DNA of 20,341 bases from Campylobacteraceae bacterium. Its GTDB lineage: Bacteria > Campylobacterota > Campylobacteria > Campylobacterales > Sulfurospirillaceae. The notes beneath the pieces were generated by a model, which saw only the letters and a list, made by a program, of their open reading frames with translations, was not told where the DNA came from and ran no database searches. The stretch is from positions 1 to 20,341 of the forward strand of contig JALUMJ010000210.1 in NCBI GenBank assembly GCA_027040375.1, read 5' to 3'. How positions within the stretch are numbered: the first letter of the stretch is position 1; each line of letters begins with the position of its first letter. This document shows positions 9,262 to 15,670 of the stretch, in pieces. The translations under genes were made by a program, and so were the position numbers.

Positions 9262-9849
9262 TTATAATGTCACCGTATCAGTATTTAAAAGCATATCTAC
9301 CGAGTCGTAGGCATTGCCAATCTCGCCGACTTTTAATTTTTCTACGGGGATATTGTAGAAGTTCAGGCATAAGCCGCAACTATATATCTTTACTCCTCTG
9401 TTTTCTAACTCTTTTAAGCTCTCAATCAAATCAAGATTTTCATCTTTTGTTGTTAAAAATACACCCTCATTTACAAATACAAGATTTTTTGGAAGTGCTT
9501 TAAATTCAAGCATAGTCTTTAGAAAACTTTTCATCAAAGTAGTTCCTAGTTCGCCATTTCCTATTTTATCAGTTTTTATAAAAACAGTTTTATTTAAATA
9601 TTTCTCTTCTTTGCTAGGGATTATAGCACACTCGTAGCCTTTTATGATAGTGATGAGCGTTTTGCCATCTTCTAGCTCTTCGGTTCTACTTTCGTAGCCT
9701 TGTTTTGTAGCAAATCTCTTTACATTTTCTTTAGATGAAATAGCATTTACTAGAACCTCAAGCAAAGAGTCATTTTCTAATTCTTCGAGTGCCTTTTTGG
9801 TTTCTAAAACTGGCTGGGGACAAGCCAAATCACAACAGTTAATCTTCAT
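9262..9849 (-). CDS. yedF: Selenium metabolism protein YedF (TusA-like plus DsrE-like domains)
   Basis: A 195-residue two-domain protein. Residues 1-72 form a TusA/SirA-like domain with the CPxP motif (C10-P-Q-P13) and extra Cys at 5 and 6. Residues about 86-193 form a DsrE/DsrF-like domain with VFIKTDKIGNGELGTTLMKSF and C158-G-L-C161. This is the layout of YedF (TIGR03527), almost always found beside selD and thought to carry or deliver selenium to SelD. AAGGAG precedes the ATG. It lies 43 bases after the response regulator and 9 bases before the selD TTG. The exact reaction is not established. Confidence 0.88.
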   Translation of the reverse strand: MKINCCDLACPQPVLETKKALEELENDSLLEVLVNAISSKENVKRFATKQGYESRTEELEDGKTLITIIKGYECAIIPSKEEKYLNKTVFIKTDKIGNGELGTTLMKSFLKTMLEFKALPKNLVFVNEGVFLTTKDENLDLIESLKELENRGVKIYSCGLCLNFYNIPVEKLKVGEIGNAYDSVDMLLNTDTVTL

Positions 9850-9892
9850 AAATTTTTTCTCCTTTAAATTCCTTTTTAATCAACAGCAGACT

Positions 9893-10936
9893 TTATGCAT
9901 GAAATTTAGCTCTAATATCAAAAAATATATCTAGATTGTCAAAAAATATATCTACAAGCTTAGGTTCAAAATGCTTGCCTCTTTGTTCCTTAAAATAGTC
10001 TATTATCTCTTTTCTACTCCAAGCTTTTTTATAAATTCTTGCACTAGAGAGAGCATCAAAAACATCTGATACGGCTGTGATTCTGCCTTGAATTGAAACC
10101 TCCTCACCTTTTAGACCGCGAGGATATCCAGAGCCATTCCACTTTTCATGGTGTTCGAAAGCTACTATAGATGCAACTTTGAGGAGTTCTCTTTGAGAAT
10201 GTTTAAGCATATCGTATCCTAATTGTGCATGAGTTTTCATAATCTCAAACTCTTCAGGTGTTAAAATATTAGGCTTATTTAAAACAAAATCAGGTATTGC
10301 CACCTTTCCAATATCATGCATAGGACTTGCCTCTTTTAGCAGTGCCGTATCCTTTGGACTAAGCCCATATTTTTTTGCCAATACCTCGGAGTACAAAGCC
10401 ACTCTCTTTACATGATAACCTACCTCTTTACTTCTTTTTTCGGAAATTTCACCCATCGTAAAGATAATTTCTCTTTGTGTATCTTCTAATTCCTGATTTA
10501 ATTTTTGCAGTTCCTTCGTTTTTATATCAACCATATCTTCAAGTACCTGTTTTTTTTCATCTAAAGAGATATGAGTAGAGACACGAGAGAGTATCTCGAT
10601 AGATCTAAAAGGCTTTGTGATATAATCAACACCGCCAATACTATATGCAGTTTCAATCGAATCATCATCCGTCTGAGCTGTGATGAAGATTATCGGGATA
10701 TCTTTTGTATTATTGTTTTCTTTGATTTTCTTACATACTTGGAAACCATTCATTTTTGGCATCAAGATATCTAGTAAAATCAAATCAACTTTTTCGGTTT
10801 CTAATAATGCAAATACATCCGATGGGTCCGTAGTGGCCAAAATATCATATCTGTCTTCAAAAATATCTATAAGGGTATTAATGTTTAATTCTATATCATC
10901 TACTATTAAAATTGTTTTATTTTTTGTCATCATCAT
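9893..10936 (-). CDS. Response regulator with HD-GYP c-di-GMP phosphodiesterase domain
   Basis: A 347-residue cytoplasmic regulator. The receiver domain (about 8-125) has acid pair D13/D14, phosphoacceptor D56 (LILLDILMP), T86 and K108. A coiled-coil linker (about 126-165) leads to an HD-GYP domain with HD at 207-208 (MHDIGK), H236, HH262-263 and GYP at 270-272 (GSGYPRGL), all needed metal and substrate residues being present. RpfG-type proteins of this layout hydrolyse c-di-GMP to pGpG/GMP. The start lies inside the 3' end of the kinase gene (20-base overlap) with AGGAG in front; three ATGs in a row make the exact start uncertain by a few codons. It should receive phosphate from the hybrid kinase through its HPt domain. 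Confidence 0.9.
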
Positions 10937-13900
10937 AGACTCCTAATGCTTCTTTGAATTTAAACTGTTTCAGATGCAGCTGTATTTGCAAAAAGAACTT
11001 CTTCTCATCTGCTGATAAATTATATTTGCGTATCTCTTCAATGATGGGTTTGCACTTTTGTATTCTTTTTGTTTTAAGAGCATCTTTCAATCTTTCAAAT
11101 ATTTCATCTTTTTTTTCTTGCTTTGCATCAATAGTAATTTTTTCTTTCTGATTTATGTCTAAACCTATAATCTTTTCTTCAATTTCTTGTATAACACAGT
11201 AAAGAACTTCATAAAACTGACCAAAGAGTGTTCTATCTAATGTATTTTGGATATTTTCCGCAATTTCTTTTAATTCAAAAGCACCCACACTACTGCTGAC
11301 ACCCTTTATGGTATGTGCCGTTCTTTTTAATTCCTCATCATCTAAATTTTCCAATTTTACATCTTTATACTCCAAAAGACCTTTTAGTATCGTTATATAT
11401 AGTTTTTCATTTCCACCTAGAAGCTTAAGTCCATAAGAGGTATCGATATTATCAAATGCGGGCATATAGTTTGTTTCAATCTCTTTTATAGATTCATCAG
11501 AAATATCAACTCTCTTTGGTATAAATTTGAGCAACACATTATAAAGCTTCTCAATATCAATAGGCTTGCTTATGTGTTCGTTCATACCCGCTTCTTTGGA
11601 TAACTTTATATCTTTATGTGTAGCATTTGCACTAAGTGCGATTATCGTGGTGTTTTGCTCAAATTCTCTTATGTTTTTTGTTGCCTCATAGCCATCCATC
11701 GTCGGCATTTGTATATCCATAAGAATTAAATCATATTTTTTATTTTTTACCGCCTCTACGGCTTTTCCCCCATTATCAACGATATCTATATTGATACCAG
11801 AGCCATCAAGTAATCCTTTTATAATTTCTTGATTTGTCTTATTGTCTTCGGCTAATAATAAATTACTCCCTGCTAGTGATTTTAAATAACACTTTAGGGG
11901 AATCTGCTTAGATTTTTTCGTTATGCTATCTACCTTTGATGTTCCATAAAAAATATCGCTTAATGCGTCATTTAACACAGATGGATTTATCGGCTTATTT
12001 AAAAACATTTTAATTCCCAATCTATCTGGTTTTTTGATTTGATTGTTTTTATTAAAAATATTCAAAATAATGATATATTTACTTCTGTTTTTAATGGCAT
12101 TTATATGCTTAATCATATCTATAACATCTGCTCCATGCATATCCCAATCTATCAAAATCAAATCATAATCTTGACTAGAATTATCAACCAAACCCATCAC
12201 TTCTTCTACATTGCTTGCACACTTTACATTTGCACCAAAAGAGTTTAGAAGATTATCAATAACCCTCAGCCAACTTCTACTGTCATCAACAACCAGTATT
12301 TGCTTATTTGTGAAATCAGCATAAAGCTTATTTTTCTTATCCCTGTTTACTAATTCGATTTCAAAAATAAATTTACTTCCTTTTCCTTCTTCACTCTCAA
12401 CCCAAATACTCCCATCCATCATCTTGCAAAGTTGCGTACAAATTGAAAGCCCAAGACCTGTTCCGCCATATTTTCTTGCAGTGCTTCCATCTGCTTGGGC
12501 AAATGGGTTAAAAATTCCGCTCAGCTGCTCTTTTGAAAGCCCAATTCCTGTATCTTTTACCGAAAACATAACTCTTTTGGAAGATATTTTATTGATTGAG
12601 AGTATAATTTCACCTTTTTTAGTGAATTTTATAGCATTTGTTAAAAGATTTGCGATTATCTGCGCAATCCTAATGCTGTCCCCATAAAATTTCTTACCAA
12701 CATCTACTTGGTAGTCAACAATTAATTCGACATCTTTCTCATAAGCTTTGTATGAAACTATATCAAAGATATTATTTATCGTCTCAAAAAGATTAAATTC
12801 TATCTTTTCGATAGATAATTTTTTTGCTTCAATTTTGCTAAAATCTAAGATATCATTTATAATTCCCAAAAGAGACTTGGCGCTATCATCAATTTTAGCT
12901 AAATACTCTCTTTGTTTTTTATATAATTTCGTCTGAAACAGCAGATGAGACATCCCAATTATTCCATTCATTGGAGTTCTGATTTCATGCGACATATTTG
13001 CTAAAAACTCTGACTTTAATCTCGTACTCTCTTGAGCTTTGTCTCTAGACAACTCTAGCTCTTTAGTTTTTTCACGAACAATATTTTCAAGATTTTTATT
13101 TAACTTTGCTAATTCAAACTGAGCAGCGAGTACATCAGTGATATCTGTAAAAGAAGCTAGTTGAAGATCAGCATTCTTATTTATGTCGATTTTAACAACC
13201 GACAAGCTAAAATAAAGATCTTTAACTCCGTTATTGATAATAACTTTAAATTTTTTATCTCTATTTTCATAAGCATGTTTTAACCAATTTTTCCCATTAT
13301 AATTTTTATTTACAATATAGCTTTCATCAGGAACATCTTTTTCAAATAAATCACAGATACATTCATGTTTATTTAAAAAATCTTCACGAGAATTAAATCT
13401 TTGAATTTTTTGAAAAAAACTATTATTTATATCTAGGATTTTATTCCCATCGGTTATCACAGTTATGCTCTCTTGGGAGTTTAATATTGCTTTTACATAT
13501 TTTTTTTCAAGCAGTAGTTTATTATTCATGATTTTAAGTTCTTCATTGCTTTTGCTTATATTTTTTATGATTTTATAGCCCAATATAAGTATAATAATAA
13601 TTATGAGTAAAATTATAATTACTCTTTTATTTTGTGTCTCTTTAATCTTGAAAATTATTTTATTGTCGAGTTTTTGAAAGAGCATATCACTATTGTGTAA
13701 AAGTCTTTGATTGTTTTCAATCATCCTGTTGAAAAATGCAGGGATAGTTTTGATAAATAGTGTTATCTTCTCCTGCATCAACCTTTCTGAATCTAATTTT
13801 TGATTTTTTTGGAAATACTTTTTTTGTTTCAAAAAGCTATTTAACTGTTGAGTCATATTTAGAAATTCCAACAACTTGGGACTTAAATCAATAGCTACCA

Positions 13901-14321
13901 AAGAAATTTCATTTTTCTTTTTTATCCAAGCAATTTTTTTGATTTCTTGAGAATTATTTACAAGGTTTAATTTTATCTCTCTTTTGTAGATACCGCCGTT
14001 TTGCAATACTTTTAGGGCATCTTTTATAATTTTGACTCTATTTCTAATTTTACGATTTATAATTTTTCTCGAAACCTTTGAGCTTCCCAAAATTCCTAAT
14101 TCATAAAAATCAGATTTTAACATATATAAATCTTGCGAAATGTATTTGTCAATTTTTATTTTATGCGATAGATTTTCTACGCGGGCTTTGTATTGTAAAA
14201 TTGCTTTATCAAATAGTACATTTATTGCAAAAAACAGAACAAAACCAAATATATATATAAAGATAAGCCATATCAACTTGGTGTTTATCTCTTTGTTTAT
14301 TTTAGCTATAGAATCACTCAT
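10917..14321 (-). CDS. Hybrid sensor histidine kinase (periplasmic sensor, PAS, HK, REC, REC, HPt)
   Basis: A 1134-residue BarA/TorS-like phosphorelay kinase. Membrane helices at about 17-36 and 233-252 frame a roughly 195-residue, mostly helical periplasmic domain. A PAS domain follows (about 273-395), then a coiled coil (400-432), the HisKA H-box with H445 ([12 protein letters not shown]), the ATPase N, G1 and G2 boxes ([26 protein letters not shown]). REC1 (673-792) keeps D680, D725 and K776 but lacks the usual MP-G after D725 and the Thr/Ser switch, so may be degenerate. REC2 (819-933) is canonical with D869 and K919. The HPt has H1003 (RTAHTIKG). The ATG follows the binding-protein stop by six bases, so that protein is the likely sensor partner. 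No HAMP domain is obvious. Confidence 0.92.
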
Positions 14322-14327
14322 ATATAT

Positions 14328-15071
14328 CTAAAAACCATACTTTTTCATCAATTTCTTACCACTATCAGATACACAATATCTTATAAACGCTTTTGCTATA
14401 TCCTTATGTTTTGAGAAAGAGAGTATATTTATTATCAATCTCTTTTTTTTAGCGAATTTTTCATCTATGGGAATAACTGTTATTTTTTCAACATTTTTTT
14501 TCAAGTATGCAGTGGCTTTCCAGTTTACACTCATATCTACTGAATTATCAAGCAACAAAGCATTTAAATCTCTTGAGTCAGTTGATATCATCGCAGTATT
14601 TTCATAAGCTTTTTGATAAAAATTGTCTCCTTTGTAACTTTTTAAAATATTTTTTGTCTCTTTTCCTATACTTCCGTGTTTGGGATCACATAATGCAGTA
14701 GCAATATTTTCATCTAGTAGGCTATCTAATCTTTTTATATTTTTTGGATTGCCTTTTTTGACAAAGATAGCAGCTTGATTATAACCGATATATGTAGAGT
14801 CTAGGAAAAAACCGTCTTTTTTATATTTTTTTATATATGCTTCACTGCCAGGAAGATATAAATCCCCTATTTTAGAAAATTTTAAAGAATCATATAAATC
14901 TTTAGAACCTCCTTGCATGATATTTATAGTGCAATTGTATTTTTTTTCTATCAAAGTAGCGATTTTTTGCATGGGTCCAACCATAGTTATACCACAATAA
15001 AAAATCAAATTATCTTTTGCACTTGCCAAACTAGAAATAAGTAAAATAGTAAGTAAAATTTTTTTTATCAT
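14328..15071 (-). CDS. ModA-like periplasmic binding protein, probable sensor partner of the kinase
   Basis: A 247-residue class II binding protein with signal peptide 1-18 (ASA cleavage region). The start is ATG 15071-15069 with GAGGAG upstream. The core has LIFYCGITMVGPMQKIA, QGGSKDLYDSLKF, DLYLPGSEAY, FVKKGNPKNI, and ADPKHGSIG-like ALCDPKHGSIG, the style of ModA-type molybdate and related oxyanion-binding proteins. No permease or ATPase gene is attached; instead the hybrid kinase starts six bases after its stop. This layout recalls TorT-TorS and AioX-AioS, where a periplasmic protein presents the ligand to the kinase. Molybdate, tungstate, selenium oxyanions or another oxyanion are possible ligands; the sequence alone does not decide. 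Confidence 0.82.
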   Translation of the reverse strand: MIKKILLTILLISSLASAKDNLIFYCGITMVGPMQKIATLIEKKYNCTINIMQGGSKDLYDSLKFSKIGDLYLPGSEAYIKKYKKDGFFLDSTYIGYNQAAIFVKKGNPKNIKRLDSLLDENIATALCDPKHGSIGKETKNILKSYKGDNFYQKAYENTAMISTDSRDLNALLLDNSVDMSVNWKATAYLKKNVEKITVIPIDEKFAKKKRLIINILSFSKHKDIAKAFIRYCVSDSGKKLMKKYGF

Positions 15072-15094
15072 ACAAAACTCCTCATTAATAAAGC

Positions 15095-15100
15095 ATATTA
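15095..15100 (-). promoter_or_regulatory. Candidate extended -10 promoter of the sensor operon
   Basis: On the minus strand TGATAATAT (TGn plus TAATAT at 15100-15095) precedes the binding-protein gene, giving a leader of about 15-20 bases. The overlapping AGCATAT on the plus strand (15092-15098) matches seven bases of one arm of the fdhD/wtpA palindromes, but no second arm is present. Confidence 0.35.
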
Positions 15101-15122
15101 TCAAAAATATTCTTAGGATGAT

Positions 15123-15144
15123 ATAATATATCAAGATATATTAT
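15123..15144. promoter_or_regulatory. 22-bp palindrome in the divergent promoter region
   Basis: ATAATATATC and its inverse flank a two-base AA centre with perfect 10-bp arms. A perfect TATAAT (15122-15127) for plus-strand transcription towards the DUF2062 gene overlaps the left arm. The site could be an operator for either gene, or simply A+T-rich promoter DNA. Confidence 0.35.
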
Positions 15145-15169
15145 GGTAAATTTGCTATACTTTCACACT

Positions 15170-15670
15170 ATGGTAAGAAAAATATTTAAAAAGAAAACTG
15201 GAAAAACGAAATTAGATAAATTTATAAAAAAATACAACATCCCAAGAGAGTTTTTGTCGGTAAATCGAAAAGCGATTACAAAAGGTTTGTTGATTGGTAT
15301 ATTTTGGGGATTTATACCTATGCCTTTTCAAATGCTAGCTGTCTTAGCGATGACTCCAATAGCTAGGTTTAATATCCCAATAGCCATAAGCATGGTGTGG
15401 CTTAGTAATCCAATCACTATGCCTTTTATGTACTATATGGAGTATATAACAGGTTCATTTATTTTAAATAAACCTCATTTGAGTGTGGAATTAACAATGC
15501 ATTGGTTTGAGGATAACTTAGGCAATATCTTCATCCCACTTTATGCAGGAACTTTGCTGTATGCTGTATTTGTCTCCGTTGGAGTTTATTATGGTGTAAA
15601 TTGGCTTTGGATTCGCTCTGTAAAGACAGAAAAGAGGCATGCAAAAAGAAAAAGAAACGCAAAAAAATAA
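15170..15670 (+). CDS. DUF2062 membrane protein
   Basis: A 166-residue protein of the DUF2062 family, the only plus-strand gene here. The family segment reads KAITKGLLIGIFWGFIPMPF (about residues 35-54), followed by LAVLAMTPIARFNIPIAISMV and WLSNPITMPFMYYMEY, with two to three membrane helices in total and a very basic N-terminus and C-terminal tail (RHAKRKRNAKK). Function is unknown; relatives sit near cell-envelope genes in many bacteria. I prefer the ATG at 15170 because the upstream ATG at 15143 overlaps a palindrome and lies too close to the likely -10 box; neither has a good ribosome binding site. Its TAA directly abuts the stop codon of the convergent permease gene, with no intergenic base. 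Confidence 0.8.
   Translation: MVRKIFKKKTGKTKLDKFIKKYNIPREFLSVNRKAITKGLLIGIFWGFIPMPFQMLAVLAMTPIARFNIPIAISMVWLSNPITMPFMYYMEYITGSFILNKPHLSVELTMHWFEDNLGNIFIPLYAGTLLYAVFVSVGVYYGVNWLWIRSVKTEKRHAKRKRNAKK

What the first reader, a model, noticed from the sequence alone, without database searches (positions are those of the whole stretch)
9893..15071. Orphan ModA-like binding protein coupled to a hybrid kinase and a c-di-GMP phosphodiesterase
A binding protein without permease or ATPase is followed 6 bases later by a large phosphorelay kinase with a helical periplasmic sensor domain, and then by an overlapping REC-HD-GYP gene. This looks like an external oxyanion sensor that adjusts c-di-GMP. It sits next to a W/Mo importer and formate dehydrogenase genes. 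I know of no characterised system with this exact composition in Campylobacterota; TorT-TorS and AioX-AioS are partial precedents.
Basis: partly seen in the sequence, partly recalled or inferred. Interest (0 to 1): 0.75.

Follow-up and report, generated by a model that had tools for sequence, protein, structure and literature searches.

The report
Binding-protein-gated sensor kinase with c-di-GMP output
A bacterium from the Campylobacter relatives carries a three-gene sensing unit in which a loose periplasmic binding protein most likely feeds a membrane kinase that controls a c-di-GMP-degrading enzyme; the binding protein and the sensor domain travel together through other bacteria, joined to different outputs, and what they sense is not known.

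Summary
A ModA/PEB3-fold binding protein (SBP, 14328-15071) lies 6 nt before a hybrid kinase (10917-14321), which overlaps a REC-HD-GYP gene (9893-10936) by 20 nt. Comparison supports the coupling: in 104 genomes of the Arcobacteraceae-type family all 34 SBP copies lie just upstream of a gene with the same sensor domain, and 34 of 38 sensor copies have the SBP. Outputs vary (kinase, hybrid kinase, GGDEF, EAL); a c-di-GMP enzyme is fused or neighbouring in 15 of 42 loci read. No Pfam sensor family fits the domain; its predicted fold resembles TorS. Likely mechanism: the SBP docks on the kinase, whose phosphorelay sets HD-GYP activity. The tungsten/selenium neighbourhood is probably incidental: none of 9 same-genus genomes has the SBP, and three have the flanks without an insert. 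The ligand is unresolved; conserved binding loops, unlike those of importer SBPs, suggest one small anion. Exceptions: three sensors with readable upstream DNA lack the SBP, one SBP is frameshifted, and distant sensors lack it. A new variant of a known kind (TorT-TorS, AioX-AioS, NspS-MbaA).

The parts
14328..15071 (-). Periplasmic solute-binding protein, 247 aa, ModA/PEB3 fold, signal-peptide-like N-terminus (by reading), no permease or ATPase partner
13536..14321 (-). Kinase residues 1-262: membrane-anchored helical periplasmic sensor domain without a fitting Pfam or NCBIfam family
10917..14321 (-). Hybrid histidine kinase, 1134 aa: sensor, PAS-like region, HisKA, HATPase_c, REC, REC, Hpt
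   Evidence: the PAS-like region (about 263-410) is named by me and has no Pfam hit in this protein; a Pfam PAS hit (PAS_8, E 0.0011) falls at the matching place in L095
9893..10936 (-). REC-HD-GYP response regulator, predicted c-di-GMP phosphodiesterase, 347 aa; overlaps the kinase gene by 20 nt
   Evidence: motifs HDIGK and [11 protein letters not shown]
9262..9849 (-). yedF (selenium metabolism), same strand, 43 nt after the cassette: flank of the insert, possibly co-transcribed
   Evidence: TIGR03527 E 2.1e-59; spacing
15143..15670 (+). DUF2062 gene, divergent: the other flank of the insert
   Evidence: PF09835; adjacent to yedF in G005, G006 and G007

Best explanation
This is a binding-protein-gated phosphorelay with a c-di-GMP output. 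The periplasmic SBP binds a small ligand and docks, loaded or empty, on the helical periplasmic domain of the hybrid kinase. Docking changes the kinase/phosphatase balance; phosphate runs from the H-box histidine through REC and Hpt to the receiver of the co-encoded REC-HD-GYP protein and changes its c-di-GMP hydrolysis. SBP plus sensor domain form an inherited input module that has been joined to different outputs. Shown by computation: gene anatomy, intact motifs, SBP-sensor adjacency, correlated divergence, conserved binding loops, recurrent c-di-GMP enzymes. Inferred: physical docking, direction of the effect, phosphotransfer to the HD-GYP protein, catalysis. Unknown: the ligand; a small, probably tetrahedral anion is the working guess.
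For: (1) Linkage: in the Arcobacteraceae-type family the SBP is in 33 of 104 genomes (34 copies) and the sensor in 36 of 104 (38 copies); all 34 SBP copies are followed by the sensor gene (recounted in 84). In 398 genomes of the order, 25 have the SBP at E<=1e-45 and 22 of these have the sensor gene adjacent. (2) Spacing is -14 to +35 nt in 35 of 36 tabulated loci, 98 nt in the other. (3) SBP and sensor distances correlate, r 0.887 over 31 pairs, best of 2000 shuffles 0.311 (shared ancestry contributes). (4) Loop signature in the 36 tabulated SBPs: GxTM 32 of 32 readable, GGS 32 of 35, GS[IVA]G 34 of 36, DSR 36 of 36, NW 35 of 36; DSR in 0 of 11 importer-type SBPs and 0 of 3 related SBPs without a sensor. 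(5) Outputs swap while SBP and sensor stay: HK, hybrid HK, GGDEF, EAL or GGDEF-EAL. (6) A REC-HD-GYP gene neighbours the cassette in 10 of 18 hybrid/HK-type loci, and GGDEF or EAL is fused in 5 more, so 15 of 42 loci read. (7) The own genome's Mod, Wtp, Pst, Pot and thiamine-type permeases each lie with an SBP (Pst and thiamine named by reading). (8) The sensor fold is nearest TorS, whose partner is a binding protein.
Confidence: 0.68

Rival explanations
1. The SBP serves a distant ABC importer (for example Mod or Wtp) and its position before the kinase is incidental.
For: The fold is that of importer SBPs; a Mod-type importer (contig C91) and the Wtp importer are in the genome.
Against: Both importers have their own SBP; 34 of 34 SBP copies in 104 genomes lie before the sensor gene; the loop signature differs from importer-type SBPs (DSR in 0 of 11).
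Confidence: 0.07
2. The SBP and kinase work together, but the co-encoded HD-GYP protein is not the main target: the phosphorelay ends on another regulator, and the HD-GYP gene is a co-transcribed neighbour.
For: None of the 19 non-hybrid loci and 8 of the 18 hybrid/HK-type loci show a REC-HD-GYP neighbour. The GC of the HD-GYP gene (0.331) matches the flanks while SBP (0.276) and kinase (0.291) are lower, so it may have a separate history.
Against: 20-nt overlap of the genes; REC-HD-GYP next to the cassette in 10 of 18 hybrid/HK-type loci; REC-HD-GYP also follows similar hybrid kinases without this SBP in relatives.
Confidence: 0.2
3. The system senses molybdate, tungstate or selenium oxyanions and tunes the formate dehydrogenase region in which it lies.
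For: Flanked by wtpABC-modE-fdhD and yedF-selD; ModA-like fold; sensor-EAL genes without SBP lie beside genes that read like selB and selA in five relatives.
Against: 0 of 9 same-genus genomes carry the SBP although the flanks are conserved in several; the interval holds nothing, or other genes, in those where both flanks are seen. I noticed no Mo, W or Se genes in the other SBP-sensor neighbourhoods printed (first 75 residues of each ORF, read by eye).
Confidence: 0.12

Closest known systems
TorT-TorS (TMAO sensing, E. coli and Vibrio)
   Different: The TorS sensor is two stacked four-helix bundles (PMC8534201, passages read), here one bundle is predicted; no sequence match over the sensor; TorT is another binding-protein type and its regulator acts on transcription (both recalled).
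AioX-AioS-AioR and ArxX/ArrX (arsenic oxyanions)
   Same: SBP without transporter, encoded with a sensor kinase and a response regulator (PMC5908839, passages read).
   Different: AioX resembles PhnD; here the SBP is PF13531. AioR binds a promoter region, here the regulator carries HD-GYP. I noticed no arsenic genes, but did not search for them.
NspS-MbaA (Vibrio cholerae, Sinorhizobium)
   Same: SBP that controls c-di-GMP turnover through a membrane receptor (PMC8967002, abstract read; PMC9993111, start of abstract in the listing). L050-L052, L095 and L101 have that layout: SBP, then a receptor fused to GGDEF and/or EAL.
   Different: NspS binds polyamines and is PotD-like (the latter recalled); in the window the c-di-GMP enzyme is a separate protein reached by a kinase.
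XylFII-LytS and HptA-HptS (SBP-kinase pairs)
   Different: Sugar or sugar-phosphate ligands and transcriptional outputs (recalled).
PEB3 (Campylobacter jejuni) and AcfC (Vibrio)
   Same: Among the nearest SBPs with solved structure by profile (PEB3 E 1.4e-9, AcfC E 1.6e-5).
   Different: No kinase partner known to me (recalled); the PEB3 loops differ in the alignment.

Membership tests
PF13531 SBP / ModA-like fold | Pfam gathering score and two-lobe fold | tested here: met
ModA equivalog (molybdate transport SBP) | TIGR01256 curated cut-off 62.5 bits | tested here: not met
   45.5 bits; also no modBC beside it
TorS family | TIGR02956 cut-off 676.5 bits over the whole protein | tested here: not met
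   389.2 bits, best stretch from kinase residue 403 on, sensor not covered
TorS family | all-helical periplasmic sensor fold | tested here: inconclusive
SBP-dependent sensor kinases (functional class) | SBP gene encoded beside its kinase and not beside a transporter | tested here: met
SBP-dependent sensor kinases (functional class) | physical SBP-sensor contact that changes kinase activity | not testable with these tools
   needs a complex model or binding and phosphorylation assays
HD-GYP c-di-GMP phosphodiesterase | HD and GYP motifs | tested here: met
   HDIGK at 207, [11 protein letters not shown] at 262, N in place of the commoner D
HD-GYP c-di-GMP phosphodiesterase | hydrolysis of c-di-GMP | not testable with these tools
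   needs an enzyme assay
AioX/ArrX family | PhnD-type SBP (PF12974) | tested here: not met
   the window SBP's three Pfam hits do not include PF12974; one relative, P0022, carries a precomputed PF12974 label beside PF13531

The most novel reading that the evidence does not exclude
The SBP and this sensor-domain family (no fitting Pfam or NCBIfam model found) form an undescribed, portable extracellular input module with one conserved ligand, a small anion important to sulfur-cycling bacteria, that evolution has plugged into kinases, hybrid kinases, cyclases and phosphodiesterases to control c-di-GMP in Campylobacterota and, by the labels of single records, in a Desulforhopalus, in Thiomargarita-labelled and other gammaproteobacterial MAGs and in a Clostridia MAG.
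Probability: 0.5. Interest if true: 0.68.

Novelty: new variant of a known kind. Interest (0 to 1): 0.52.

Why it matters
PMC9602780 (passages read) says that only about ten examples of SBPs activating sensor kinases were characterised by 2022. Here one SBP family is tied to one sensor-domain family across dozens of genomes, with outputs that differ. That gives a natural series in which the same input can be tested with a kinase, a cyclase or a phosphodiesterase, and a defined place to look for a new external signal that sets the c-di-GMP level.

Tried and rejected
Function from the W/Se/formate-dehydrogenase neighbourhood: rejected as main evidence, because same-genus genomes have the flanks without the cassette and I noticed no such genes at the other loci printed.

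Unused importer partner: the 18 permease matches in the own genome were read with short flanks. Mod, Wtp, Pst, Pot and thiamine-type permeases, and amino-acid- and peptide-type ones whose flanks could be read, had SBP-like neighbours; fragments on C75, C7 and C58 could not be assigned. Names other than Mod, Wtp and Pot are from reading.

The first genome-contig scan with the single SBP found nothing; the alignment scan gave 26 loci, two of which (L053, L054) are fragments with no SBP ORF called and were left out. The protein-wide search with the sensor region gave 5 hits, the query among them. PDB sequence search with the sensor profile gave no hit better than E 0.061, chiefly helical or coiled-coil chains and proteasome subunits. 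Foldseek on the sensor gave helical bundles, best E 9.6e-4 to flagellin. In Pfam, the 30 sensor domains gave 76 weak families at E<=1 (25 shown, best Baculo_11_kDa 2.5e-4; one member touched 4HB_MCP_1 at 0.0046), and NCBIfam 32 (25 shown, best 0.0024); I take these as chance.

Two cysteines (C26, C128) looked like a possible ligand or disulfide pair, but several SBPs have one and not the other. The equation of S56, G133-I135, S166 and W184 with S45, S130-G132, A173 and W192 of 1sbp rests on sequence alignment (S45 by matching the GGS motif by eye); which 1sbp residues touch sulfate is recalled.

A sensor tree does not place the window firmly and needs 6 gains or losses of SBP adjacency; several branches are long and its bootstrap had not settled.

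Literature: searches returned nothing, 53 one unrelated genome paper by its abstract start, 83 eight of ten listed, none about such a system by title and abstract start. Names such as SelA, SelB, TamA, TamB, FdhF for neighbours come from reading sequence, not from a call. Loci L030-L055 and L085-L105 overlap in part (same contigs); the 42-locus count uses each contig once: 36 plus L107 and L233-L237.
Full report
What is there. On the minus strand the window holds three genes in a row: a PF13531 solute-binding protein (SBP), a 1134-aa hybrid histidine kinase and a REC-HD-GYP protein. The SBP ends 6 nt before the kinase, and the kinase and HD-GYP genes overlap by 20 nt. The SBP start at 15071 has a GAGGAG ribosome site (sequence). 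Phosphorelay residues and HD-GYP metal motifs are present. No permease or ATPase belongs to the cassette.

Is the SBP tied to the kinase? Searching 398 genomes of the order (own genome included) with the SBP profile gave 25 genomes at E<=1e-45 (37 at 1e-25); in 22 of the 25 the sensor-domain gene is adjacent by the places (in G065 only its first part, at a contig end), and the other 3 (G107, G119, G230, one genus) have SBPs with a different loop signature. In the Arcobacteraceae-type family, 33 of 104 genomes have the SBP (34 copies) and 36 of 104 the sensor (38 copies); all 34 SBP copies precede a sensor gene (in G299 the SBP match is its first part, the gene being frameshifted). The patchy presence means that the two are gained and lost together. 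Spacing is -14 to +35 nt in 35 of 36 tabulated loci (98 in L047), and SBP and sensor divergence correlate (r 0.887, 31 of 36 pairs, five cut or partial ones left out; best of 2000 shuffles 0.311), though shared ancestry adds to that.

Outputs. Of 42 SBP-sensor loci read (36 tabulated, plus L107 and L233-L237), 19 have a plain kinase (L086 frameshifted, L037 short), 18 are hybrid-kinase or related types including the window (L045 plain kinase, L072 cut), and 5 are fused to GGDEF and/or EAL. A REC-HD-GYP gene neighbours the cassette in 10 of the 18 (window, L043, L045, L048, L072, L100, L107, L235, L236, L237; in L236 split in two ORFs, in L045 two genes away). So 15 of 42 have a c-di-GMP enzyme fused or neighbouring; the 19 plain-kinase loci show none within three ORFs, some being cut by contig ends. 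L234 has a convergent EAL-bearing gene that I did not count. Hybrid kinases similar to the window's C-terminal part are followed by REC-HD-GYP in relatives (for example in G014, G015, G017, G020 and G022, where no SBP was found at E<=1e-25 among those listed, and elsewhere in G010; places compared by eye), so the window joins a common output pair to this input module.

Exceptions. Sensors without the SBP: G401, G418, a second copy in G299, and G434, where the contig ends. G401 is syntenic with G399 but lacks the SBP. Of 19 further sensor loci read (L152-L170), 17 with readable upstream DNA have no adjacent SBP of this kind, and L154 and L157 are cut; L169 is the second copy of G299 just named; in L152 a distant PF13531-like gene lies with one gene between. 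Their outputs are GGDEF, GGDEF-EAL, plain kinase, or hybrid kinase followed by a small gene and a REC-EAL gene. So the sensor domain can exist without this SBP.

Ligand. In the 36 tabulated SBPs the loops read GxTM (32 of 32 readable), GGS (32 of 35), GS[IVA]G (34 of 36), DSR (36 of 36) and NW (35 of 36); DSR is in 0 of 11 importer-type SBPs and 0 of 3 sensor-less relatives. This holds at 36-58% identity to the window (31 rows). In alignment with 1sbp, S56, G133-I135, S166 and W184 fall on S45, S130-G132, A173 and W192, which I recall as sulfate ligands. A small, probably tetrahedral anion is plausible; PEB3 and AcfC show that organic anions are not excluded. Neighbours give no common theme: rnr and ilvC are nearby in 15 of the 19 plain-kinase loci, and mixed genes flank the others printed.

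Setting. The cassette lies between yedF-selD and DUF2062-wtpBCA-modE-fdhD. None of 9 same-genus genomes has the SBP at E<=1e-25. Of those nine, G005, G006 and G007 have yedF and DUF2062 adjacent; G003 and G008 have two long genes (in G008 two more) between them; in G002, G004 and G009 DUF2062 was not seen near yedF; G001 has no yedF match. The yedF side is conserved up to its start; the other end matches only by short runs. SBP and kinase are lower in GC (0.276, 0.291) than the flanks (0.326-0.358); the HD-GYP gene (0.331) is not. The SBP is 53-58% identical to most SBPs of the plain-kinase type but 42-43% to those of L100 (G029) and L045 (the G010 contig), genomes of its own family. Together this points to acquisition into a variable site, so the tungsten/selenium neighbours say little about function.

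Mechanism. By analogy with TorT-TorS, AioX-AioS and NspS-MbaA (sources under Closest known systems), the SBP binds its ligand, docks on the kinase, and the relay sets the HD-GYP protein. Docking, direction and catalysis are inferred. Searches found no paper on this composition; absence from that library is weak evidence.

Verdict. A real, conserved SBP-gated sensor system, a new variant of a known kind, with an unknown ligand.

Noticed in passing
   Followed up: partly
L109 and L110: In L110 the fdhD-modE-wtpACB and yedF-selD ends flank a second SBP-permease-ATPase importer in the interval where the window has its sensing cassette; L109 shows part of the same arrangement.
   Followed up: partly
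L103, L104, L106: SBPs related to the window's, without the sensor gene and with altered loops, lie near 674-678-aa genes; the one in L106 reads like a molybdopterin formate dehydrogenase.
   Followed up: no
L158, L160-L165, L167 (family f7): The sensor domain without SBP in plain or hybrid kinases; in seven of these eight loci a small gene and a REC-EAL gene follow (L158 is cut).
   Followed up: partly
L230 against L233: Syntenic loci in two related genomes, one with SBP plus kinase and one with only the kinase: a natural loss (or gain) of the SBP.
   Followed up: partly
L086 8400-10420; L107 7306-7999: The kinase gene of L086 and the SBP gene of L107 are each split in two reading frames; sequencing error or decay was not told apart.
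   Followed up: no
window 9849-15143 and L184-L191: The interval between yedF and the DUF2062 gene holds different genes in related genomes; in G003 and G008 two long genes that read like tamA and tamB.
   Followed up: partly
L095 2854-5679: The gene just before the SBP is a NIT-HAMP-PAS-GGDEF-EAL protein by Pfam, so a nitrate-type sensor and the SBP-GGDEF pair sit together.
   Followed up: no
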